A stretch of DNA of 64,000 bases from Eubacterium sp. (lineage in GTDB: Bacteria; Bacillota; Clostridia; Lachnospirales; Lachnospiraceae), in the NCBI GenBank assembly GCA_017619835.1, contig JAFZRN010000038.1, positions 43,658 to 107,657 of the forward strand, in the 5' to 3' direction. The first letter of the stretch is position 1. Each line of letters opens with the position of its first letter. Shown here piece after piece: positions 807 to 36,266 of this stretch. Both the position numbers and the translations under genes were made by a program. Under the pieces are notes generated by a model, which was given only the letters and a program-made list of their open reading frames with translations, made no database searches and was not told the origin of the DNA.

Positions 807-2789
807 TTACTCTACGATTCGTTTGAATTTCTTATCAAGTTCTGTTTTAGTCATCTTGATTATCGTCGGACGACCGTGCGGGCAAGTATAAGGATTATCA
901 AGGCTCATGAGCCTATCCATAAGTGTCTGGACTTCTTCAAACGTAATCTTCTGATTACCTTTAACAGCTGCCTTACAGCCCATAGTCGCAAGCTTTCTCA
1001 CAAATATATCTTCAGTGAGGTCTTCCAAATCATTTGTAATATAATCGGCAAGCTCCATAAAAACATCTCTCGTACCAAGGCCGAGAAGATTTGCGGGTAC
1101 CGCGGAGACTTTAATCTCATTTCCACCGAAATCCTCGATCTCGAAGCCGAACTTCTGCATGTAATCGGTCTTGGACAGGACGGCCTCTTTTTCACGACTC
1201 GTCATAGTGAAGATTTCAGGCGGGAAAATGTTTTGGCTATGTATCTTCCTTTCCTTAAACTCCTTCAGGAAAGTCTCGTAATTCACCTTTTCGTGGGCAG
1301 CGTGCTGGTCCATCAGATAAAGGCAGTCCTCATATTCGGTGATCCAGTATGTGTCGAAAGCAAGGCCGATAATTCGATGCTTTGGACGAGCCTCTTCGGA
1401 AAGATAACGGGTTTCAGTGAGTTCTTCCTGCTTGAATTCGAACTTTGGTGAAGCCGTACTTTCTGAAGTGTTTTCTATCGGATTATCTGTATTGGTGTTT
1501 GATACACTTTCTTCCACGCTGCGACCAAGCTTCTCACGGTATTCCTTGGGAAGAAGACTCTCAAGGATTGAGAAACTGTTTTCCGAAGTGGATGATTTAG
1601 GTCTGTCTAATATGTTAGACGGATTTTTATGGTCAATCTTGTCTAATGTATTAGACGAATATCTGTTCTGCTCTTCCACTACCATATCCGGTTGAGGAAT
1701 TTTGTTAGAAGCTACAGAACTCAGCTTTGTCTCCGGAACAGGCTGCTTAACCGGCTTCGGAACAGTATAATCAGATGCTGTATCAGGAATGAATTCTTTA
1801 TTCTCGAGAGCATTTTTCACTGCGTGAAATACTCCGCTGAAGAGTTCTTTCTCATTATCAAATCTGAATTCACGCTTGGCCGGATGCACATTTACATCCA
1901 CCATATAAGTCGGAACCTCGATGAATAGAGCCGTATAAGGGAAACGGTGCTGCATTATGTGAGTCTTATATGCTTCTTCAATCGCACGGTTAACAACTGC
2001 ACTCTTTATATAACGTTTGTTTACGAAATAATTTTCAAAACTGCGGTTACCTTTAGAGATAAATGGCTTTCCGACAAAACCGGTCAGCTTTATCTCGCCA
2101 TCCTCAAAGGTATGGGTATAATCGACCTCGAGAAGTCCGCGGGTGATGTCCTTTCCGAAAAGGGAATAAACAGTCTCCTTCAGACGGCCGTCGCCCTGAG
2201 TGTCTACAATAGTCTTGCCACCTGAGATCAGCTTTATAGCTACACCCGGATTAGCTAGAGCAATGTGGACTATGAGATCATTTATATAAGAACCCTCAGT
2301 CATATTGGACTTGAGGAACTTCTTACGCGCAGGGGTATTGAAAAAAAGATTGCGGCTTATGATGGTCGTACCGTCGGGAGCGCCTATTTCCTTGAATTCC
2401 AGCTCCTTGCCGGCTTCGATGACATATCTGATACCTGTCAGAGCATCATGCGTTTTCGTAACCATTTCCACTTCACTTACTGCTGCTATCGTGGAGAGAG
2501 CCTCGCCTCTGAAGCCGAGGGACGTGATGTTCATGAGGTCGTCGATGGTATCGAGCTTGCTGGTCGCGTGGCTGTAATAAGCTTTACGTACATCGTCTGC
2601 ATCGATTCCGGAGCCGTTATCGGTCACACGGATCATGCTGGTTCCGCCGTCGGTAATCTCTATGGTCACACGTGTTGCACCGGCGTCGATTGAGTTCTCA
2701 ACGAGCTCCTTAACTACGGAAGCCGGGCGCTCGATAACCTCACCCGCTGCTATCTTATCAATTGTATGTTGGTCTAATACTCTAATCAT
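807..2789 (-). CDS. mutL: DNA mismatch repair endonuclease MutL
   Basis: MutL couples mismatch recognition by MutS to strand nicking and removal. The 660-residue protein has the GHKL ATPase motifs (ELVENSIDAGA, DNGSGI, GFRGEAL) in the first 110 residues. The C-terminal half has the latent endonuclease motif DQHAAHEKVNYE plus ACKAAVKG and CPHGRPT, so this is the nicking type found in bacteria without MutH. The central linker is disordered and contains two SNTLD/SNILD peptides encoded by palindromes at 1605-1620 and 1641-1656. It sits downstream of mutS with an intergenic palindrome between them, and upstream of miaA. The ATG at 2789 matches the conserved N-terminus. Confidence 0.97.
   Translation of the reverse strand: MIRVLDQHTIDKIAAGEVIERPASVVKELVENSIDAGATRVTIEITDGGTSMIRVTDNGSGIDADDVRKAYYSHATSKLDTIDDLMNITSLGFRGEALSTIAAVSEVEMVTKTHDALTGIRYVIEAGKELEFKEIGAPDGTTIISRNLFFNTPARKKFLKSNMTEGSYINDLIVHIALANPGVAIKLISGGKTIVDTQGDGRLKETVYSLFGKDITRGLLEVDYTHTFEDGEIKLTGFVGKPFISKGNRSFENYFVNKRYIKSAVVNRAIEEAYKTHIMQHRFPYTALFIEVPTYMVDVNVHPAKREFRFDNEKELFSGVFHAVKNALENKEFIPDTASDYTVPKPVKQPVPETKLSSVASNKIPQPDMVVEEQNRYSSNTLDKIDHKNPSNILDRPKSSTSENSFSILESLLPKEYREKLGRSVEESVSNTNTDNPIENTSESTASPKFEFKQEELTETRYLSEEARPKHRIIGLAFDTYWITEYEDCLYLMDQHAAHEKVNYETFLKEFKERKIHSQNIFPPEIFTMTSREKEAVLSKTDYMQKFGFEIEDFGGNEIKVSAVPANLLGLGTRDVFMELADYITNDLEDLTEDIFVRKLATMGCKAAVKGNQKITFEEVQTLMDRLMSLDNPYTCPHGRPTIIKMTKTELDKKFKRIVE
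1605..1620. repeat. In-frame 16-bp palindrome, copy 3 (in mutL)
   Basis: GTCTAATATGTTAGAC is identical to copy 2. It encodes SNILD in the disordered linker of MutL. Confidence 0.85.
1641..1656. repeat. In-frame 16-bp palindrome, copy 4 (in mutL)
   Basis: GTCTAATGTATTAGAC is a near-perfect palindrome lying 20 bases from copy 3. It encodes SNTLD in the MutL linker. Confidence 0.8.
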
Positions 2790-2810
2790 AATTTATGCCT
2801 ATTTGTGTAT

Positions 2811-2845
2811 TTTTTGTGTCCGGGGTCAGACCCCTTTTATGTAAA
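2811..2845. repeat. Palindrome A1 (GGGGTCAGACCCC core)
   Basis: The core is at 2822-2834. The left arm ends TTGTGTCC and the right arm reads CTTTTATGTAAAC, so the two arms are different modules. The right arm touches the mutS stop codon. Confidence 0.85.
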
Positions 2846-5536
2846 CTAGTTCAATCTTTGTTTGAGTTCCTGGAGGTACAGGAGGGCCTTGACGGGAGTC
2901 ATGTTGTCGAGGTCCATGGATTTAAGTTCGGCAGCGACGTTCATTTCTTCGGTTGATGCGAAGAGAGACATCTGGCCTTCGAACTGGCCTTTTCCGTAGG
3001 AGCCTTTTGATCTGCCTTTATCTTCTGCTTTATGCGAAGCGACTGCTTCGAGGTCACGGGACTTACCTGTGATATCTTCCTCTGACAGGAACTCAGCTAT
3101 CTCCTTAGCTCTTTCGGTTACAACAGCGGGAACTCCGGCAAGCTCGGCAACTTCGATTCCGTAGGATCTGTCTGCTCCGCCACGGATTATCTTACGCAGA
3201 AATACAAGTCTGTTCTTATCATGCTTGATCGCGATTGAGTAATTATTTACGGATGAAAGCTTGCCTTCAAGCTCGGTCAGCTCGTGATAATGCGTTGCAA
3301 AAAGGGTCTTGGATCCAAGCATGTCATTATCTGCGATATATTCTACAACCGCCCAGGCAATCGATAATCCGTCAAATGTCGACGTACCGCGTCCGATCTC
3401 ATCCATTATTATCAGCGAATCACGGGTAGCATTTCGAAGAATGTTCGCTACCTCACTCATTTCCACCATAAAGGTCGACTGGCCCTGAGCCAGGTCATCA
3501 CTCGCACCAACTCTTGTAAATATTCTGTCGGATATACTTATATCAGCCATATCAGCGGGCACGAAGGAACCAATCTGCGCCATCAGACATATCAGAGCAG
3601 TCTGACGCATATAGGTTGATTTACCGGCCATATTCGGGCCTGTGATGATCATTATGCGGTTAGCCTGATTGTCAAGTGTCGTATCATTGGGGATAAAGGA
3701 ATCATTTCCGAGAATCTTCTCAATAACCGGATGGCGGCCATTTTTAATCTCGATGGCGCCGGTTGTGTTGAGCGACGGACGGACATAATTCTCCCTCAAA
3801 GCAACTGTGGAAAGCGAAGCCATAACGTCGATAAGTGCAATCTGATATGCAGTCTTCTGAACACGGGCGGTCTCGAGAGAAAGCGCATCACGGAGCTTTA
3901 CAAATTCATCATATTCAAGGCCATAAAGATTCTCTTCAGCGCTCAGGATCTCGGAGGATAGCGACGAAAGCTCATCCGTCGTGAACCTCTCCATATTTGT
4001 GAGGGTCTGCTTCCTGATAAAATAATCAGGCACAAGATTTTTATACGAATTCGTAACCTCGAGGAAGTATCCGAACACGCGGTTGAACTTGATCCTGAGA
4101 TTCTTGATGCCGGTCGCATCCCTCTCTCTCGCCTCAAGCTCGGCGAGAATTGTCTTGGAATTAAGCTTCTTATAACGATAATTATCGATATGCTCATTAT
4201 ATCCGGTCTTGAAAATGCCACCTTCCCGGACAGTTATCGGAGCATCCTCGTCAATCGCCGATTCAAGCAACGCATGGATATCCTCGAGCGTATCAAAGTT
4301 TTCATATATGTCAGCAAAAAGCTGCCCATTCATTTCCCCTACAAGCCTCTTTATGAAAGGCAGGTATTCGAGCGAAGTCTTGAAAGCAAGCATGTCGCGG
4401 GGATTTGCGGTTCTCATTGAGATTCGTGTCATCAGACGCTCGAGATCATAGATTGAGCTAAGGTACTCTCTCATTTCGTCGCGCGAGATGACATTTACAT
4501 TAAGGCTGTCGATCGCATCAAGTCGCTTCTCAATCTCGTTAATATTCATGAGCGGCATTTCAATAAAACTGCGAAGAAGTCGTGCACCCATTGCGGTCTT
4601 TGTCTTATCAAGGACCCAAAGCAAAGAGCCCTGCTTCCTGCCGTCTCTCATAGTCTCGATAAGCTCGAGATTACGGCGGGTTGATGAATCTATAATCATA
4701 TAGTCAGATGTCATGTACATCTCAAGATGATTGATCTGCTGCAGACTGCTCATCTGAGTATCATGAAGATATCTGAGGAGCGCTCCTATAGCAAGAACGG
4801 TTTCGGGAATATCCTTAAGGCCAATGCCTTCGATTCCGGAAACTCCGAACTGCTCTTCGATACGTTTTACGGAGTCGTCGTAATTTACAAAATTATCAGC
4901 AATAACACTCTTTGTTATCGATAATTTTTCTGATAATTCATTTATAGTTAACATAATATCATTATTGTTAACTGAATCACAGAAAATGATTTCACTTGGC
5001 GAAAATTTATTGATTTCATCAAATACTTTCGAAACAGCTTCAACGCTCGTACATACAAATTCACCTGTGGAAATATCCGAGACGGCGATTCCGAACTTCG
5101 AACTATTCTTAGGTGAAGTAAAGCTCATTATGTAGTTATGCTTGTCTTCCTTAAGGCCGGCCTCTTCGATGCTGGTACCGGGAGTCACTACTCTTATGAC
5201 CTTACGCTCAACGAGACCCTTAGCAAGTTTAGGATCCTGAACCTGCTCGCATATAGCAACCTTGTAGCCCTTCTCGATAAGCCTTGATATATAGACTTCG
5301 GCGGCATGATAAGGGATTCCGCACATCGGCGCCCTCTCCTCAAGACCGCAGTCCTTACCAGTAAGAGTCAGTTCAAGCTCACGCGAAACATTTACGGCAT
5401 CATCAAAAAACATCTCATAAAAGTCACCCAGCCTGTAGAAAAGAACACAGTCCGGGTACTCGTCATGAGTCGCAAGATAATGCTTCATCATCGGAGACAG
5501 CTTGCTTATATCAATTTTCTCAGTTAATTCACTCAT
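2846..5536 (-). CDS. mutS: DNA mismatch repair ATPase MutS
   Basis: MutS binds mismatches and small loops and recruits MutL in an ATP-dependent manner. The 896-residue protein carries the N-terminal mismatch-binding motif (FYRLGDFYEMF, with the conserved Phe-x-Glu) near residue 38. In the C-terminal ATPase it has a Walker A motif, GPNMAGKST, and Walker B IIMDEIGRGTS. Length and domain order are those of the family. It is transcribed toward mutL and probably shares a transcript with it. Its TAG stop is directly followed by palindrome A1, whose inserted-looking arm begins at the next base. The miaB gene lies upstream. Confidence 0.98.
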   Translation of the reverse strand: MSELTEKIDISKLSPMMKHYLATHDEYPDCVLFYRLGDFYEMFFDDAVNVSRELELTLTGKDCGLEERAPMCGIPYHAAEVYISRLIEKGYKVAICEQVQDPKLAKGLVERKVIRVVTPGTSIEEAGLKEDKHNYIMSFTSPKNSSKFGIAVSDISTGEFVCTSVEAVSKVFDEINKFSPSEIIFCDSVNNNDIMLTINELSEKLSITKSVIADNFVNYDDSVKRIEEQFGVSGIEGIGLKDIPETVLAIGALLRYLHDTQMSSLQQINHLEMYMTSDYMIIDSSTRRNLELIETMRDGRKQGSLLWVLDKTKTAMGARLLRSFIEMPLMNINEIEKRLDAIDSLNVNVISRDEMREYLSSIYDLERLMTRISMRTANPRDMLAFKTSLEYLPFIKRLVGEMNGQLFADIYENFDTLEDIHALLESAIDEDAPITVREGGIFKTGYNEHIDNYRYKKLNSKTILAELEARERDATGIKNLRIKFNRVFGYFLEVTNSYKNLVPDYFIRKQTLTNMERFTTDELSSLSSEILSAEENLYGLEYDEFVKLRDALSLETARVQKTAYQIALIDVMASLSTVALRENYVRPSLNTTGAIEIKNGRHPVIEKILGNDSFIPNDTTLDNQANRIMIITGPNMAGKSTYMRQTALICLMAQIGSFVPADMADISISDRIFTRVGASDDLAQGQSTFMVEMSEVANILRNATRDSLIIMDEIGRGTSTFDGLSIAWAVVEYIADNDMLGSKTLFATHYHELTELEGKLSSVNNYSIAIKHDKNRLVFLRKIIRGGADRSYGIEVAELAGVPAVVTERAKEIAEFLSEEDITGKSRDLEAVASHKAEDKGRSKGSYGKGQFEGQMSLFASTEEMNVAAELKSMDLDNMTPVKALLYLQELKQRLN

Positions 5537-31240: not shown

Positions 31241-31266
31241 GGTTTACATAAAAGGGGTCTGACCCC
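31241..31266. repeat. Palindrome A6 (GGGGTCTGACCCC core)
   Basis: The core is at 31254-31266 with left arm TTTACATAAAA. The right side (CTATCGGTTTCATGAC) resembles A2. It is the palindrome nearest the transposase gene, about 60 bases from its stop. Confidence 0.85.
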
Positions 31267-31301: not shown

Positions 31302-31324
31302 AATAAAAAAAGCCCTCACGGGCT
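31302..31324 (-). terminator. Intrinsic terminator of the XRE-transposase operon
   Basis: On the minus strand AGCCC-GTGA-GGGCT is followed by a run of T residues, beginning a few bases after the transposase stop. Confidence 0.85.
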
Positions 31325-31326
31325 AA

Positions 31327-31944
31327 TTAATCTATATCCTTAATATCTTTTTTAATAAGTATTTCCTGATCTGTATGGTCTATTCTGTCTTCGACAAACT
31401 GTTTGTACTTATACTGACTGTTTGAATTACACATTCCCAGAATACGATCTGTATCGATCAGATTTGAAATGGCTCGATACGGATCATTTTTATCGAAGCC
31501 ATTTTCATTTACATATGTTTTAAAGCTGCTATAAAAATAGTCGTATGGATCTTTTACCAGATTTGCCTTCACAGGATTTAGATGAATATAGCGGCTGACC
31601 TCGAGAAAGTATCTCTCATCTTCTACCAGACAAGCAGTGTATCTCCCTTCAAACAAATGGCCCGTCAATTCATGACGATAATTATAATCCTCTGCATATG
31701 AAGACAACAACTTCTGCATGATCTTCGAAAGTTCAGTATCTTTCGTCTCTATTAGCATATGGAAATGATTTGACATCAGGCAAAAAGCATGCAAATAAAA
31801 GTCCTGATTATCTTTAACTGTTTTAAGATATGTAAGGAAACGCCTACGGTCGATTTCATCCTTAAATATAGTTGATTTATGGTTCCCACGACTCATAACA
31901 TGGTAAATGGCTCCCGGGTACCAAATCCTTTTACGTCTTGCCAT
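31327..31944 (-). CDS. REP-associated tyrosine transposase (RAYT, TnpA_REP)
   Basis: This 205-residue protein belongs to the single-stranded-DNA HUH transposases related to IS200/IS605. It opens ARRKRIWYPGAIYHVMSRGN and has the HUH motif HFH at residues 60-62 (LMSNHFHMLIE). The candidate catalytic tyrosines are in SSYAEDYNYRHE (83-89), followed by the family motifs GHLFEGRY and YIHLNPVKA. RAYTs are domesticated enzymes, single copy, thought to move or amplify REP palindromes. No flanking transposon ends are visible, but palindromes A6 and A7 bracket the locus. It lies 21 bases after an XRE regulator gene with a GAGGT ribosome site, so the two are likely co-transcribed. Confidence 0.92.
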   Translation of the reverse strand: MARRKRIWYPGAIYHVMSRGNHKSTIFKDEIDRRRFLTYLKTVKDNQDFYLHAFCLMSNHFHMLIETKDTELSKIMQKLLSSYAEDYNYRHELTGHLFEGRYTACLVEDERYFLEVSRYIHLNPVKANLVKDPYDYFYSSFKTYVNENGFDKNDPYRAISNLIDTDRILGMCNSNSQYKYKQFVEDRIDHTDQEILIKKDIKDID

Positions 31945-31965
31945 ATAACTACCTCTACTATTCTG

Positions 31966-32373
31966 TCACTCTATTTTTTTGTCAATAAGATCATCAAATT
32001 CCTTTTTGTATTTATTTATCTGCTCACGATATTCTTCAGACAAAGCATACATATATCCAAGAAGGCGTAGTCTCGAATCATCAGATAATCTGTTATAATC
32101 AGAAATGAATTTTCCCATTTCAGTTTTTTTATCTATCACCAGAAAATCCGGCTCATTATCTTTACTATCTTTCTTTTCTATTCCGGAAAGAAGCCACTCA
32201 GGACTAACTTTCAGCACATGACATATGATCATAATCTTGTCTGCGGATGGATTTGTATTTTTTGATTTCCATTCACTTATCGCACTTTGTGATATTCCGG
32301 TCTTCTTGGAAAATTCCTTCTGTGTCATTTTAATTTCTTTCAATCTTTTGAAAATGCGTTCTGGGATTGTCAT
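31966..32373 (-). CDS. XRE-family transcriptional regulator
   Basis: The 135-residue protein has a helix-turn-helix at residues 8-60 (MTQKEFSKKTGISQSAISEWKS), as in phage Cro/CI-like repressors, and a charged C-terminal helical part (DYNRLSDDSRLRLLGYMYAL) typical for dimerisation. AAGGAG precedes the ATG. The gene heads the operon with the transposase. Upstream, a perfect inverted repeat TTGAATA-TTAG-TATTCAA (32408-32425) overlaps the -35 box of a divergent small-RNA promoter. Autoregulation plus control of the divergent unit is a natural inference. The closely spaced genes make it a plausible guardian of transposase expression. Confidence 0.85.
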   Translation of the reverse strand: MTIPERIFKRLKEIKMTQKEFSKKTGISQSAISEWKSKNTNPSADKIMIICHVLKVSPEWLLSGIEKKDSKDNEPDFLVIDKKTEMGKFISDYNRLSDDSRLRLLGYMYALSEEYREQINKYKKEFDDLIDKKIE

Positions 32374-32407
32374 GATAGGTGCTCCTTATCACTAATAAAA
32401 ATATTGG

Positions 32408-32425
32408 TTGAATATTAGTATTCAA
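32408..32425. promoter_or_regulatory. Putative operator of the XRE regulator
   Basis: TTGAATA and TATTCAA are perfect 7-bp arms separated by TTAG, lying between the XRE gene and the divergent promoter. The left arm includes the -35 box TTGAAT. Confidence 0.6.
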
Positions 32426-32436
32426 CATGTTATATT
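32408..32436 (+). promoter_or_regulatory. Promoter of divergent small RNA
   Basis: TTGAAT (32408-32413) and TATATT (32431-32436) are spaced 17 bp. The expected transcription start is about 32443-32444, at AGGAAGCACC. Confidence 0.65.
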
Positions 32437-32443
32437 GTGAATT

Positions 32444-32543
32444 AGGAAGCACCCACTCCAAAGTGGATGCCTACCGAGAGTGTATACCCAATTAGGGGCA
32501 CGCCTCTCCCGTTGGCAGACAGGGAGAGGCATTTTATTTATTT
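32444..32543 (+). ncRNA. Putative small RNA antisense to the 3' region of the toxin transcript
   Basis: A promoter at 32408-32436 and a terminator hairpin with perfect 9-bp arms (GCCTCTCCC 32502-32510, GGGAGAGGC 32522-32530) followed by ATTTTATTTATTT define an RNA of roughly 90-100 nt with no sizeable reading frame. A second hairpin, GCACCCACT/AGTGGATGC, is near its 5' end. The convergent 38-residue hydrophobic peptide gene ends inside the terminator tail. The RNA would thus be complementary to the end of that mRNA, a type I antitoxin arrangement. Transcription is inferred, not shown. Confidence 0.5.
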
Positions 32544-32654
32544 CGCTTGTCTTTCTTCTCTAAGAAATGAAAGCAATGCTATGATCAGTGAACCGAGCGA
32601 TATCAATAAATTGATCATTCTCAGTATAATTGAAATGATTTCAAATACTGTCAT
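32538..32654 (-). CDS. Small hydrophobic peptide, holin-like/type I toxin candidate (38 aa)
   Basis: This 38-residue peptide (TVFEIISIILRMIN near the start, LISLGSLIIALLSF in the middle, charged REERQAK tail) is a single membrane helix. It resembles the small 'holin-like toxin' peptides of Firmicutes that begin MxxFEAxxLM. A very strong GGGAGG lies eight bases before the ATG at 32654; an in-frame ATG at 32660 is too close to it. The 5' leader starts near 32750, with TATATA about 32761-32766 as a possible -10. It is convergent with the putative small RNA. I infer a type I toxin-antitoxin pair; a short secreted or regulatory peptide is the alternative. Confidence 0.6.
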   Translation of the reverse strand: MTVFEIISIILRMINLLISLGSLIIALLSFLREERQAK

Positions 32655-32819
32655 ACACATCACCTCCCTTCCGATATAATCCGAAAATTTCCGGTATAGG
32701 GGCTCGGGAGGCTACCACCCTGTCATGAGTGCTTCCTGTAAAAGAAACAATAACACTAACATATATATAATACAACAACAAAATTCGCAAATTTTAAATA
32801 ATTCGAAAATACGAATCTA

Positions 32820-32872
32820 AATGTGAAAGAATTGTGTCCGGGGTCAGACCCCGGACACATTTCTTTCACATT
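32820..32872. repeat. Palindrome A7 (symmetrical, 26-bp arms)
   Basis: The core GGGGTCAGACCCC is at 32840-32852. Both arms are the AATGTGAAAGAA-TGTGTCC module with one mismatch. A run of seven T residues at 32871-32877 overlaps its end, so it can also terminate transcription. Confidence 0.92.
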
Positions 32873-32963
32873 TTTTTGTGCGTGATACATTGCTGATACA
32901 TTGGCATATTATATTACAAGCAAGATATGCATTTTTATTCGATTCCACGAAAGGGAAAATATA

Positions 32964-34553
32964 ATGAAAAAGTATAGTAAAACCTCCAAAATTCTCATAT
33001 GCGCCGTGCTCTCGGTTTCCATGCTTCTCTCCCTTACCTCCTGCGGTAAAAAATCCGCACAGGAAATCGATGAGTACGGCGGTGAAGATGCCTCGACTTT
33101 AATATCCGAGGAAGCCACTGAAGATCAGAGTCTTGTCGAAGAACTTGTTGAGCCTTCCGAGGAAGCAGGTGTACAGATCAGTCCTAACGGTGAGATCAGC
33201 TGGAGCGAAGCTCTCACTGTAAAGGGAAATGTCATCGATGTGAACGCATTTGTCGAGGTTCCTGAGCTTAATAGTCTGAATGTTTATAAATCAAATATAA
33301 ATCTTGATGATACTAACGGCGAGGAGGAATTTGTAAACAAGATTTTCGACAGCGATGCCGAGAAGCTCGAGTCGATCAGCTACACAAATGAGACCGACTA
33401 CATCATGCAGCTTTATAAGTATGACAGGATTCAGGATATGCAGTCCGAGTATGGCTTCGATTATGATATGATCGACAAATCATTTGACCAGAAATACGAA
33501 TGGATCAATACTCAGAGCATGTCAATCCATATGTATCAGGGCAAGTTCCAGGGCATCGATTATGTGCTGTTGCTTGGATACGATCACATGAATAATGAAA
33601 AGTATATCAATTTCATGCCTAAAAATATAAATGATTACTTCCCGGAGCACCGTTTCCAGACCATGATGGCCAAACGTTCGGTTCTTGCGGACGGAACCAA
33701 GGATGATTTTGATAACAAATGTCTTCTTTCCGAAGAAGAAGTCACGTCAAGAGCACAGGAATTCCTAGAAGGCCGTGTCGGACTTAACGGAATTGATTCC
33801 AAGGTTGGACTCGATGCCACGGATTATGCTCAGGAAATGTCGGATATGAACCTTGGTATGGAAGACGAAAACCAGGAATTCTGTCTGTCATCGCTTGTTT
33901 TTTCGGAATCTGACCTGTTAAGCACTTATGCAACTATAACTGAATATCAAAGCTACAGGCATAATATGATGCTCGCCGAGCAGGAAGACAAGGTTAAGGA
34001 ATACATGGATGAGCATAAGATGGATGACAGGATGATGGCCACCTTTGATGCTGCTCTTGAAGCTGATCCGGCTCCTGAGGATAAGCTTTATGAAGACGGT
34101 TATGCCGTATACCTTGATGATATATATAATATAAACGCCGGGCATCCCACCAAAGGAAGTGTCACAAATGGCGTGTCCTGGGGATTTTCCTCGGCCATTG
34201 GTAATAAAGGTGCTGTAATGTTGACGCAGGAAGGCATTTTCGGTATAGATTTAAAACTTAAATATGAGACCGTTGATGTTACTGAGGATGTCGAGCTGCT
34301 CGAGTTTGATAAGATCAGAGAATCTGTGATAAATACCCTCAATAAAGAAGTGAATTTTGAAGAGCTTGGAACCGAAAATCTAACACTTCCCGGAATGTCG
34401 CTTTGCTATTCCGAGGTCGGCGAAGGTTCCGAGGTCACACTCATCCCTACCTGGAAATTCGTTGTCTTCTCAGACAAAGCAACTGCCCTGATCAAGATCA
34501 ACGCCATCGACGGCTCGCTCCACTCCTGCGATATCTTTAGCAACCTCGATTAA
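32964..34553 (+). CDS. Secreted lipoprotein of unknown function, paralogue 1
   Basis: The protein of about 529 residues starts at MKKYSKTSK (32964), with an AAGGGAAAA ribosome site. The signal peptide has lipobox LTSC, so it is anchored on the outer face of the membrane. An acidic linker (about residues 25-60) precedes a large domain with VEVPELNSLNVY and YTNETDYIMQLYK. The late motifs NLTLPGMSLCYSE and VPTWKFVVFSD-like PTWKFVVFSD recall substrate-binding or YcdB-like repeat folds, but I cannot name a family. It is nearly half identical to the next gene and probably arose by tandem duplication. Palindromes A7 and A8 flank it. Confidence 0.85.
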   Translation: MKKYSKTSKILICAVLSVSMLLSLTSCGKKSAQEIDEYGGEDASTLISEEATEDQSLVEELVEPSEEAGVQISPNGEISWSEALTVKGNVIDVNAFVEVPELNSLNVYKSNINLDDTNGEEEFVNKIFDSDAEKLESISYTNETDYIMQLYKYDRIQDMQSEYGFDYDMIDKSFDQKYEWINTQSMSIHMYQGKFQGIDYVLLLGYDHMNNEKYINFMPKNINDYFPEHRFQTMMAKRSVLADGTKDDFDNKCLLSEEEVTSRAQEFLEGRVGLNGIDSKVGLDATDYAQEMSDMNLGMEDENQEFCLSSLVFSESDLLSTYATITEYQSYRHNMMLAEQEDKVKEYMDEHKMDDRMMATFDAALEADPAPEDKLYEDGYAVYLDDIYNINAGHPTKGSVTNGVSWGFSSAIGNKGAVMLTQEGIFGIDLKLKYETVDVTEDVELLEFDKIRESVINTLNKEVNFEELGTENLTLPGMSLCYSEVGEGSEVTLIPTWKFVVFSDKATALIKINAIDGSLHSCDIFSNLD

Positions 34554-34600
34554 ATGTGAACATTCTGTGTCCGGGGTCTGACCCCGGACACAATTTTTAC
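34553..34600. repeat. Palindrome A8
   Basis: The core GGGGTCTGACCCC is at 34573-34585, with left arm AATGTGAACATTCTGTGTCC and right arm GGACACAATTTTTAC. It overlaps the last base of the paralogue 1 stop codon. Confidence 0.9.
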
Positions 34601-34619
34601 AAACTTTGGGAGGTACTAC

Positions 34620-36266
34620 ATGAATAAATATACGAGAAATCTTAATCGCAAAATATCTGCTATTCTTATACTTGCACTACTGCTATCGATCACTTCATGC
34701 GGCAAAGCTGCGAGCAATGATATATCCGAATATGGCGGCGAAAATGTAGACATATCATCTATCCCCGAGCCTGATAACTCAAGTCTTTCCGAGGACCTTG
34801 AGATTGCTGATGAATTGTCAAATGAGTCTACAGATGAATCGTCAGATACTTCGAATTTATCAGGCAAGAAGCTTACCTGGAATGAGGTCTACGATACCGG
34901 TGACGCAATAATCAATATCGATTCATTTGTCGAGGTGCCTGATCTTAACAGCCTTAATGTTTATACGGTTGAATCGACATCTTACACTGATGATCAGGAG
35001 GCCACGCTGGTATCGAACCTTTTTGATAGTGATGTTGAGAAGATTGAAAAGCTAGCTTATACAAATGAGACGGATTACATCATGCAGCTTTACAAGCTTG
35101 ATTTTCTCATGGCAATTTACAGCAGAGGCGAACATGAAATCCAGGATTTTGTCCTGATCGATAAGGATTATGATAAAACTTACACCTGGGTCGATAACGA
35201 AAGCTACTCGATCCATATGTATAAAGGCAAGTTCCAGGGCATCGATTACGCGCTTATCCTTTCTTTTGACTATATTTGCGAAGAGCAATACATTTACTTT
35301 ATGCCAGTAAACATCAACGATTACTATCCGGAGCATAGATTTAAAACCCTTCTGGCAAAGCGCGAAATTGATGTTCTGGGCAATTCCACAGGAGTTTCTG
35401 AGAACAAATGTGCCATTTCCGAGGATGAGATCAAGGATAAGGCCAGCGAATTCCTGCAGTATCGGCTCGGGTTAAATGAGAACGACTGCAAGGTCGGCTA
35501 TCATCATCAGGAATATCTTACCTATCTCGCGGATATGAATCTCGGTTTTGCTATGGAGTATACAGATGAAGAAAGTATAACTTCGATAACATTTTCGGAA
35601 GAAGACTATCTGACTACGTTTGCGACTGTCGCAAATGAGCAGATCATCAGAAACAACATCCTGCTTGCTGAACAGGAGGACGTTGCGAAGGAATACATGG
35701 ACGATTCGCATGACGAAACTAATAACAGGATTTCGGCCTCAATGAACGCGGCAGTCAACATGCGAAGTGAAAACCGCGAGCTTGATCCGGACCTCTATTA
35801 CGAAGACGGTTACGCGGTTTATCTAGAGGACATATTCAATATCTATGAGTCGGATTCTCCGACGATAGAGACTACAAACGGCTCAAGCTGGGGCTTCTCG
35901 TCCGAGATTGGTAATAAAGGCTGCGTATATATCACTGAAAATGGCATCTTTGGCGCGGACCTGCTTCTGGTCTTCAGGACCATAGACGAGGTTGAAGATG
36001 TCGAGCTTCTTAAGTTCGATAACATTAAACAATCAGTTAAAAATGTGCTCAAAAACGAGGTAAATTACGATGAAATGGGTAAAGGCAATCTCACTCTGCC
36101 GGGAATGAATCTTTGTTACTCACTTGAAACAGACGAAAAGACCGGTCAGATGTCCCTCGTTCCCACCTGGAAATTCCTTGTTTTCTCAGACACAGGAACA
36201 GCCTTCATCAAAATCAATGCCATCACCGGCGAACTCCAAAACTGCACCTCCTGGAAAAATCAATAA
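34620..36266 (+). CDS. Secreted lipoprotein of unknown function, paralogue 2
   Basis: The 548-residue protein has a signal peptide with lipobox ITSC and an acidic Ser/Asp/Glu linker. Its domain matches paralogue 1 throughout: VEVPDLNSLNVY, YTNETDYIMQLYK, MYKGKFQGIDYAL, WGFSSEIGNKG, NLTLPGMNLCYS and VPTWKFLVFSD. A good GGAGG site precedes the ATG at 34620. The pair is co-directional with only palindrome A8 between them, so expression may be linked or separated by that hairpin. The DGxAVYLxDIFNI region is conserved in both and may mark the core of the fold. Confidence 0.85.
   Translation: MNKYTRNLNRKISAILILALLLSITSCGKAASNDISEYGGENVDISSIPEPDNSSLSEDLEIADELSNESTDESSDTSNLSGKKLTWNEVYDTGDAIINIDSFVEVPDLNSLNVYTVESTSYTDDQEATLVSNLFDSDVEKIEKLAYTNETDYIMQLYKLDFLMAIYSRGEHEIQDFVLIDKDYDKTYTWVDNESYSIHMYKGKFQGIDYALILSFDYICEEQYIYFMPVNINDYYPEHRFKTLLAKREIDVLGNSTGVSENKCAISEDEIKDKASEFLQYRLGLNENDCKVGYHHQEYLTYLADMNLGFAMEYTDEESITSITFSEEDYLTTFATVANEQIIRNNILLAEQEDVAKEYMDDSHDETNNRISASMNAAVNMRSENRELDPDLYYEDGYAVYLEDIFNIYESDSPTIETTNGSSWGFSSEIGNKGCVYITENGIFGADLLLVFRTIDEVEDVELLKFDNIKQSVKNVLKNEVNYDEMGKGNLTLPGMNLCYSLETDEKTGQMSLVPTWKFLVFSDTGTAFIKINAITGELQNCTSWKNQ

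What the first reader, a model, noticed from the sequence alone, without database searches (positions are those of the whole stretch)
31302..32872. XRE regulator, RAYT transposase, divergent sRNA and toxin-like peptide form one module
Between palindromes A6 and A7 the window holds an XRE repressor-like gene co-directional with the RAYT 21 bases away, a palindromic operator, a divergent promoter with a terminator-bounded RNA of about 100 nt, and a convergent 38-residue hydrophobic peptide. A regulated RAYT next to a type I toxin-antitoxin-like unit could be an addiction-stabilised REP-generating locus. I know of no described system of this composition.
Basis: inference. Interest (0 to 1): 0.78.

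Follow-up and report, generated by a model that had tools for sequence, protein, structure and literature searches.

The report
Toxin-antitoxin and regulator riding a REP transposase
In a rumen-type gut bacterium, a transposase that goes with scattered palindromic repeats shares one repeat-bounded unit with its likely repressor and an RNA-controlled toxin pair, and a second lineage carries the same four-part order at a different place, which suggests a repeat-making element that carries its own regulator and possibly an addiction system.

Summary
Between two REP palindromes lie a RAYT gene (31327-31944 -), an XRE gene 21 bases upstream (31966-32373 -), a roughly 99-nt RNA (about 32443-32541 +) and a 38-aa hydrophobic peptide (32538-32654 -). 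Peptide and RNA look like a type I toxin-antitoxin pair: 24 of 29 family loci match the same antitoxin RNA, and the toxin mRNA's two ends pair with covariation in 27 aligned loci. No Rfam family reached its threshold. In 29 fetched loci outside the genus the pair had no RAYT beside it. The XRE family has a RAYT directly downstream in 15 of 83 copies. The complete order recurs in one other lineage, two sister genomes (L149, L155), at a non-syntenic site between two near-identical 81-nt palindromes of another REP type, with a RAYT of another deep clade. So the module is real but rare. XRE repression of RAYT is the better-supported step; addiction is untested.

The parts
31254..31266 (.).
   Evidence: 46 copies of the core in the genome
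31327..31944 (-). RAYT (REP-associated tyrosine transposase), 205 aa, HUH (NHFH) and Tyr (RYIHLN) motifs present
   Evidence: NF047646 82.7 bits over cut-off 80; PF01797; motifs
31966..32373 (-). XRE/Cro-CI type regulator, 135 aa, of a Lachnospiraceae family recurrently found upstream of RAYTs
   Evidence: PF01381 51.8 bits; 15 of 83 family copies have a RAYT ORF within 300 nt downstream of the matched stretch
32407..32426 (.). palindrome GTTGAATA-TTAG-TATTCAAC; overlaps the -35 of the antitoxin promoter; may also regulate XRE (inference)
   Evidence: not conserved in L091
32408..32436 (+). antitoxin promoter TTGAAT-17-TATATT
   Evidence: similar hexamers can be read upstream of the antitoxin in homologues (by eye)
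32443..32541 (+). antitoxin RNA, about 99 nt (5' end inferred from the promoter, 3' end from the terminator)
   Evidence: 24 of 29 family loci matched the same search pattern
32502..32530 (+). antitoxin terminator stem-loop, T-rich tail to 32541
   Evidence: 6 pairs changed on both sides in 28 sequences; not listed by the simple scan
32538..32654 (-). toxin ORF, 38 aa MTVFE..., stop included; SD GGGAGG upstream
   Evidence: PF16935 22.6 bits, just below 23.3; family alignment; 68 of 397 family-level genomes match at E <= 0.01
32440..32740 (-). toxin mRNA (inferred span): leader with anti-SD CCTCCC, ORF, 3' end at hairpin GCATCCACTTTGGAGTGGGTGC; its 5' and 3' ends pair
   Evidence: MFE z -7.9; 27 of 27 rows close 5'-3'; covariation
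32719..32737 (-). 5' arm of the long-distance pairing (3' arm 32444-32462)
   Evidence: helix 1: 97.2% of cells paired, 6 of 17 pairs with a change on both sides
32747..32775 (-). toxin promoter TTGTAT-17-TATTGT (by eye)
   Evidence: same spacing in L091 and L093 in the alignment (by eye); not listed by the scan
32801..32816 (.). candidate XRE-family operator ATTCG-AAAATA-CGAAT, the only RTTCR-N6-YGAAY in the window
32819..32873 (.).
   Evidence: 27-nt arms, 96% complementary

Best explanation
This is a REP-bounded RAYT unit that carries its own regulation and a type I toxin-antitoxin pair. Shown: the anatomy, the conserved RNA structures (by covariation), the recurrence of XRE-RAYT, and the four-part order in a second lineage at another site with another REP type. 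Inferred: the XRE protein represses the promoter that drives XRE and RAYT (and possibly the toxin), so the transposase is expressed only occasionally and acts on the genome's REPs. Inferred: the toxin mRNA is made but kept silent by pairing of its two ends and of its leader with the ribosome-binding site, and the convergent RNA destroys or blocks it. Loss of the unit would stop the short-lived antitoxin first, so the pair stabilises a locus that carries a RAYT.
For: RAYT and REP. In 79 XRE loci (647,498 bases) 17 RAYT ORFs were found, 15 of them directly downstream and co-directional with an XRE. XRE-family motif RTTCR-N6-YGAAY: upstream of 12 of 84 copies and downstream of 6 of 84, against 0.22 and 0.36 in single-letter shuffles; in L157, L182 and L207_1 it lies between XRE and the likely RAYT start. 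Second lineage: L091/L155 and L149 have the same order between two 81-nt palindromes (for L091, for L149) beside different genes. The TA copies of the two lineages group together (83/60, one change on the tree), while their RAYTs fall in two deep clades. TA: conserved antitoxin RNA; 5'-3' pairing with 30 double-changed cells against 10.9 in shuffles and 9 pairs against 4.8, each reached in 0 of 500 shuffles.
Against: Full order in only two lineages; the grouping of their TA copies has weak support (83/60). In the XRE tree (84 rows, 118 columns, many forks open) RAYT-linked XREs are scattered about as much as shuffled labels, so the XRE-RAYT link seems to form and break often. RAYT-centred, only 3 of 29 RAYTs had this XRE. 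Three of the six downstream motif copies (L147, L162, L196) are not in front of a RAYT. The canonical motif is absent between sRNA and XRE in both TA-bearing lineages, and the one in the window is about what chance gives in 64 kb (my rough estimate). No empty site found. Similar repeats on both sides were found for 6 of 13 evaluable RAYT-linked XREs but also for 7 of 63 others, and the window itself did not pass that test (E 0.027; its two REPs share only the 13-nt core). The ribosome-binding site stays paired in the predicted folds even when the 3' end is cut off, so 3' trimming alone does not explain how the toxin would be switched on. No transcript or phenotype data.
Confidence: 0.55

Rival explanations
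1. Two independent things side by side: an XRE-RAYT operon (functional) and a widespread free-standing type I TA that happens to sit upstream; the second lineage inherited or received the whole stretch by chance.
For: In 29 fetched loci outside the genus (L220-L248, flanks up to 1.5 kb, some cut at contig ends) the peptide has no RAYT and no XRE of this family beside it; two have weak matches to the XRE profile (L234 4e-4, L237 8e-5). In the genus, G023, G027 and G465 have the TA without a RAYT or this XRE; G027's second copy lies about 500 nt from a gene with a weakly related HTH (E 1e-6).
Against: Same order and similar spacing at two non-syntenic loci, both bounded by REPs of the resident type; TA and XRE DNA align as one 667-bp block at 71% while the RAYTs are 33% identical.
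Confidence: 0.35
2. The RAYT is domesticated and the unit is immobile; the REPs mark past activity only, and XRE and TA are passengers kept by a REP-rich, rearrangement-prone site.
For: The REP transposase is called domesticated in the literature (PMC8266576, start of abstract in the listing). Single copy here. Neighbouring genes differ between genomes at these sites.
Against: Two near-identical 81-nt palindromes bracket the whole unit in L091/L155/L149, and the unit lies at different sites.
Confidence: 0.3
3. The XRE acts mainly on the TA (a transcriptional layer over the antisense RNA), and the RAYT is just read through from it.
For: The 32407-32426 palindrome overlaps the antitoxin -35, and the only canonical motif in the window lies upstream of the toxin promoter.
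Against: The XRE family sits mostly without this TA (2 of 79 loci have it), and the -35 half of the palindrome also occurs in TA copies without XRE.
Confidence: 0.2

Closest known systems
RAYT/REP units (Nunvar et al. 2010, PMC2817692: passages seen)
   Same: Y1 transposase with HUH and Tyr motifs, gene flanked by REPs, REPs scattered in the genome.
   Different: Here the REPs also enclose an XRE gene and a type I TA; in the passages seen only RAYT and REPs are described, and the terms toxin and helix-turn-helix have 0 occurrences in that paper's main text.
TA pairs in Tn3-family transposons (PMC7157771: title and start of abstract seen in the listing)
   Same: A toxin-antitoxin pair described as part of a transposition module.
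   Different: Here a small hydrophobic peptide with an antisense RNA, a Y1/HUH RAYT, and REP palindromes as boundaries. That the Tn3 pairs are type II is recalled, not read.
aapA/IsoA of Helicobacter pylori (PMC6733600: passages seen)
   Same: Toxin mRNA silenced by 5'-3' long-distance pairing, with anti-SD hairpins and an overlapping antisense RNA.
   Different: No sequence relation tested; here the pairing is predicted only, and in the predicted folds removal of the 3' end does not free the SD.
BsrG/SR4 and TxpA/RatA of B. subtilis; C. difficile type I TAs (PMC6563280: passages seen)
   Same: 30-60 aa hydrophobic toxin with charged C-terminus, convergent overlapping antisense RNA.
   Different: Rfam BsrG 21.5 bits, cut-off 55; Pfam Hol_Tox just below cut-off; those described there lie mostly in prophages or beside CRISPR arrays.

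Membership tests
RAYT | Y1 transposase profile and HUH + Tyr residues | tested here: met
   NF047646 82.7 of 80; NHFH and RYIHLN
RAYT | gene flanked by REPs that are repeated in the genome | tested here: met
   cores at 31254 and 32840; 46 copies in the genome
RAYT | cleaves or moves REP DNA | not testable with these tools
   needs biochemistry
Type I toxin-antitoxin | small hydrophobic peptide with charged end, own promoter and SD | tested here: met
   (toxin promoter by eye; not listed by the scan)
Type I toxin-antitoxin | overlapping antisense RNA with own promoter and terminator | tested here: met
   (sequence anatomy; no transcript)
Type I toxin-antitoxin | toxicity and neutralisation by the RNA | not testable with these tools
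   needs expression tests
Hol_Tox (PF16935) / BsrG (RF01412) | score over the curated cut-off | tested here: not met
   22.6 of 23.3; 21.5 of 55
aapA-like 5'-3' closed toxin mRNA | conserved pairing of mRNA ends | tested here: met
   27 of 27 folds; covariation over shuffles and slides on four of five measures, the fifth (further pair types) reached by 32 of 500 shuffles
aapA-like 5'-3' closed toxin mRNA | 3' trimming frees the SD and activates translation | tested here: inconclusive
   with the last 55 nt removed, 4 to 6 of 6 SD bases stay paired in all 27 predicted folds; a bench test is needed
TA-bearing transposon (Tn3-like) | TA pair together with the transposase between the element's ends | tested here: inconclusive
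   two 81-nt palindromes bracket TA, XRE and RAYT in L091, A6/A7 in the window; that these palindromes are element ends is not shown
TA-bearing transposon (Tn3-like) | type II (protein) antitoxin (recalled) | tested here: not met
   the predicted antitoxin is an RNA
TA-bearing transposon (Tn3-like) | empty site or new copies showing movement as a unit | tested here: inconclusive
   neighbour genes rearranged, no empty site found

The most novel reading that the evidence does not exclude
A REP-generating transposase has turned into a self-limiting, addiction-stabilised chromosomal element: the XRE keeps RAYT expression low, REP palindromes form the element's ends, and a type I TA kills or arrests cells that lose it; the TA-XRE part is exchanged between RAYTs of different clades.
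Probability: 0.25. Interest if true: 0.82.

Novelty: new variant of a known kind. Interest (0 to 1): 0.6.

Why it matters
How single-copy RAYTs persist although REPs spread at low rates is an open question (from my own knowledge). A RAYT packaged with a repressor and an addiction pair would be a direct, testable answer. Separately, the antitoxin RNA and the 5'-3' closed toxin mRNA form a family in the family-level set of genomes searched (68 of 397 with the toxin at E <= 0.01) that matched no Rfam family above its threshold in the seven sources scanned (2.2 kb of the window; six loci).

Tried and rejected
Rfam matches to miRNA and other families over A7, the RAYT gene and the TA: all far below gathering scores, rejected as chance. 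BsrG match (E 0.02) kept only as resemblance. Reading the 32407-32426 palindrome as the XRE family's operator: rejected as shown, because its half-site order is the reverse of the family motif and it is absent in L091. Mobile XRE alone, from L207's two 99.7% identical copies: set aside because an N gap suggests an assembly fault. Empty-site search at both loci: no clean junction. Phage or plasmid origin of the toxin: no tblastn match in either collection at E <= 1, which says little for a 38-aa query. Literature on RAYT with TA, RAYT/REPIN in Clostridia, RAYT with XRE, TA with IS200/IS605, and Hol-Tox in Lachnospiraceae: the listings I read showed no such composite; the held library is open-access only and most listed papers were not opened.

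Rows dropped: of 29 family TA loci (L220-L248) five did not match the antitoxin search pattern (L230, L237, L238, L240, L244), nor did L095 of the genus, which I added to A4 and A5 by hand. L222 was cut at a contig end for the leader and is missing from A5. L149 was left out of A4 and A5 as a near-copy of L091, and G027's decayed second copy was not used there. Five leaders missed by the first pattern were added with looser words. L237, L238, L240 and L244 look like variant antitoxins by eye. In one search, 30 of the 32 RAYT places had been fetched; L051 gave no RAYT ORF; L027 has a weak, different HTH beside its RAYT (E 3e-4). In the RAYT tree, rows of 120 aa or less were dropped (L207_1). 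In one search, 3 RAYT-linked and 5 other XREs had short flanks. The query alignment A1 held three RAYT-linked XREs, so 13 of the 15 linked copies are outside it, and L149/L155 are sister genomes. Two of the 15 linked RAYT ORFs are truncated (L193 132 aa, L207_1 58 aa), and L207_2 (158 aa) may be. The two RAYTs not directly downstream lie upstream of the XRE (L206) and about 1.5 kb downstream (L216). Counts of 84 XREs include the window, 83 do not.
Full report
Anatomy. The window lies in a 2.75-Mb assembly (G000). By the named relatives that came up it is of the rumen Lachnospiraceae kind (inference). Between the REP core at 31254-31266 and the REP palindrome at 32819-32873 there are four genes: RAYT (31327-31944 -), XRE (31966-32373 -), a small RNA (about 32443-32541 +) and a 38-aa hydrophobic ORF (32538-32654 -). 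The 21-base gap between XRE and RAYT is as reported. The RAYT passes its curated model (82.7 bits, cut-off 80), is the only Y1_Tnp match in the assembly, and keeps the HUH and Tyr motifs. The REP core GGGGTCWGACCCC occurs 46 times in the genome, with 0 in the backward control; 10 of the 46 are in this window, which is 2.3% of the assembly.

The TA pair. The ORF falls just short of Pfam Hol_Tox (22.6 of 23.3), and Rfam BsrG covers the region end to end but far below threshold (21.5 of 55). In the relatives set (61 genomes with the window's) the peptide was found at E < 1e-6 in G012, G023 and G027, with weak matches (E 0.3 to 0.7) in G022, G047 and G056 and a second place in G012. A profile of five peptides (A3) found it in 68 of 397 genomes drawn from the window's family at E <= 0.01 and in 6 of 61 genomes of the genus at E <= 1e-4. 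Of the 29 loci fetched besides the window's (L220-L248), 24 matched one antitoxin search pattern. In the 28-sequence alignment the antitoxin has a 5' hairpin with the invariant core CTCC, a terminator with 6 pairs changed on both sides, and a T-rich tail. The 5' hairpin itself shows no double change. The window's sRNA folds better than all 200 shuffles (z -4.4).

The toxin mRNA closes on itself. Its first 19 or so bases pair with its 3' end. The predicted fold is better than all 200 shuffles in the window (z -7.9), L091 (z -7.3) and L093 (z -10.5). In 27 aligned loci every minimum-energy fold has at least 12 pairs between the first 45 and the last 50 bases. On the structure taken from the window, 9 pairs and 30 cells are changed on both sides (shuffled means 4.8 and 10.9, reached in 0 of 500), and sliding the partner lowers every measure. 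One measure is weaker: further pair types, reached by 32 of 500 shuffles. Helix 3, nearer the ORF, is kept in only 69% of cells. The structure was derived from the window itself, which favours it on cells paired. The leader's CCTCCC pairs with the ribosome-binding site in 10 of 27 full-length folds and in 23 of 27 when the last 55 nt are removed (my count). So the site is hidden either way, which fits a silent message but leaves open what switches it on. The hairpin GCATCCACTTTGGAGTGGGTGC at the 3' end is followed by at least 6 T in 9 in 21 of 27 rows, but by 5 in the window and 3 in L091. So the toxin message may read on into XRE and RAYT in the two module lineages (inference from two cases; L093, L229, L241 and L246, without this XRE or a RAYT beside them, also have fewer than 6).

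XRE and RAYT. A scan of one genome per species gave 79 loci with XRE relatives (the best 80 of 283 confirmed), 83 copies, 80 with at least 500 nt downstream. A RAYT ORF lies within 300 nt downstream on the same strand of 15 copies. These loci hold 17 RAYT ORFs in all over 647,498 bases, so 15 of 17 fall into a slot that makes up about 4% of the sequence. Twelve control loci with weaker XRE relatives had none. Seen from the RAYT side the link is less common: 3 of 29 RAYTs. On the XRE tree the RAYT-linked copies are scattered (14 changes between linked and unlinked, at least 8 forced by well-supported branches; shuffled mean 14.9), so the pairing seems to have formed or broken many times. The motif RTTCR-N6-YGAAY occurs within 200 nt upstream of 12 of 84 XRE copies and downstream of 6 of 84, against 0.22 and 0.36 in single-letter shuffles. 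Three of the six downstream copies lie in front of a RAYT (L157, L182, L207_1), and in L182 and L207_1 the copy contains TATAAT; the other three (L147, L162, L196) do not precede a RAYT. This makes repression of RAYT by XRE the best-supported regulatory step, though no binding has been shown. In the window the only such site is at 32801-32816, upstream of the toxin promoter; by my rough estimate about one is expected in 64 kb by chance. In L149/L091 the single site is a hairpin inside the toxin leader and is probably RNA structure.

The four-part order elsewhere. L091 (G012, the same contig as L155) and its sister L149 (also seen as G461) carry toxin-antitoxin-XRE-RAYT in the same order, between a topoisomerase-like gene and a gene like cystathionine gamma-synthase (names by eye, from recall), not beside the window's neighbours. 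In L091 two 81-nt palindromes, 100% identical, bracket the whole unit; L149 has the same pair with small differences. Searching with this palindrome gave 24 matching pieces in G012, both strands and the two bracketing copies counted, and none in G000, G002, G005 and G008. TA and XRE align with the window as one 667-bp block at 71%, but the RAYTs are 33% identical and fall in two deep clades. The TA copies of the two lineages group together with modest support (83/60). The simplest reading is one TA-XRE union whose RAYT partner and REP type were exchanged, but two captures are not excluded. Other XRE-RAYT pairs also lie among REP-like repeats: L141 and L157/L092, where three 103-nt copies lie before XRE, between XRE and RAYT, and after RAYT. 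A search for similar repeats on both sides was positive in 6 of 13 evaluable RAYT-linked XREs (the window not among the six) and 7 of 63 others.

What is against it. The TA is usually free-standing: in the 29 loci there was no RAYT within the fetched flanks, of up to 1.5 kb and in some cases cut by contig ends, and no XRE of this family (two weak profile matches, L234 and L237). G023, G027 and G465 in the window's own genus have it without them. The upstream neighbours of the window's ATP-grasp operon differ between genomes, and none of the seven relatives looked at has the unit there; six relatives of the L091 site gave no empty junction either. Nothing here shows transcription, toxicity, repression, addiction or movement.

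Known relatives. RAYTs flanked by REPs are known (PMC2817692, passages). Long-distance closed toxin mRNAs are known from aapA/IsoA (PMC6733600, passages). Convergent type I pairs in Clostridia are reviewed in PMC6563280 (passages), where most lie in prophage regions or by CRISPR arrays. TA pairs as part of a transposition module are described for Tn3 transposons (PMC7157771, listing only). In the listings I saw no RAYT with XRE or type I TA. I therefore call it a new variant of known kinds, with the TA RNA family as a second, separate result.

Noticed in passing
loci L220-L248 and window 32438-32746: A type I TA family with a covarying antitoxin terminator and 5'-3' closed toxin mRNA; no Rfam match above threshold in the sources scanned.
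   Followed up: yes
L187:2347 onward: An XRE of the same family is followed by ORFs that look like IS200/IS605 TnpA and a second transposon ORF, i.e. another Y1 transposase coupled to this XRE (by eye).
   Followed up: no
window 2822, 5573, 13802, 22802, 25102, 31254, 32840, 34573, 36286, 37449: 10 of 46 genome copies of the REP core lie in this window (2.3% of the genome): REPs crowd around the RAYT. Half-arms come in two kinds (TGTGTCC and TTTACATAAAA).
   Followed up: partly
L093:13434-13680: Second TA copy in G027 has lost the leader and the antitoxin 5' part: a decayed copy with the ORF kept, about 500 nt from a long ORF with a weakly related HTH.
   Followed up: no
L238, L240, L244: Toxin with a different antitoxin 5' end (L240/L244: GAGGTCAACCACTTTGTGGGCGGTTG on the toxin strand; L238 similar with an insert), probably a sub-family with its own pairing code.
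   Followed up: no
L207:369-744 and 2651-3026: Two 99.7% identical XRE copies next to an N gap; either recent duplication or an assembly fault.
   Followed up: partly
window 32964-36266: Two neighbouring, similar lipoprotein-like ORFs (529 and 548 aa) separated by a REP core at 34573; the first has no Pfam match at E <= 1.
   Followed up: no
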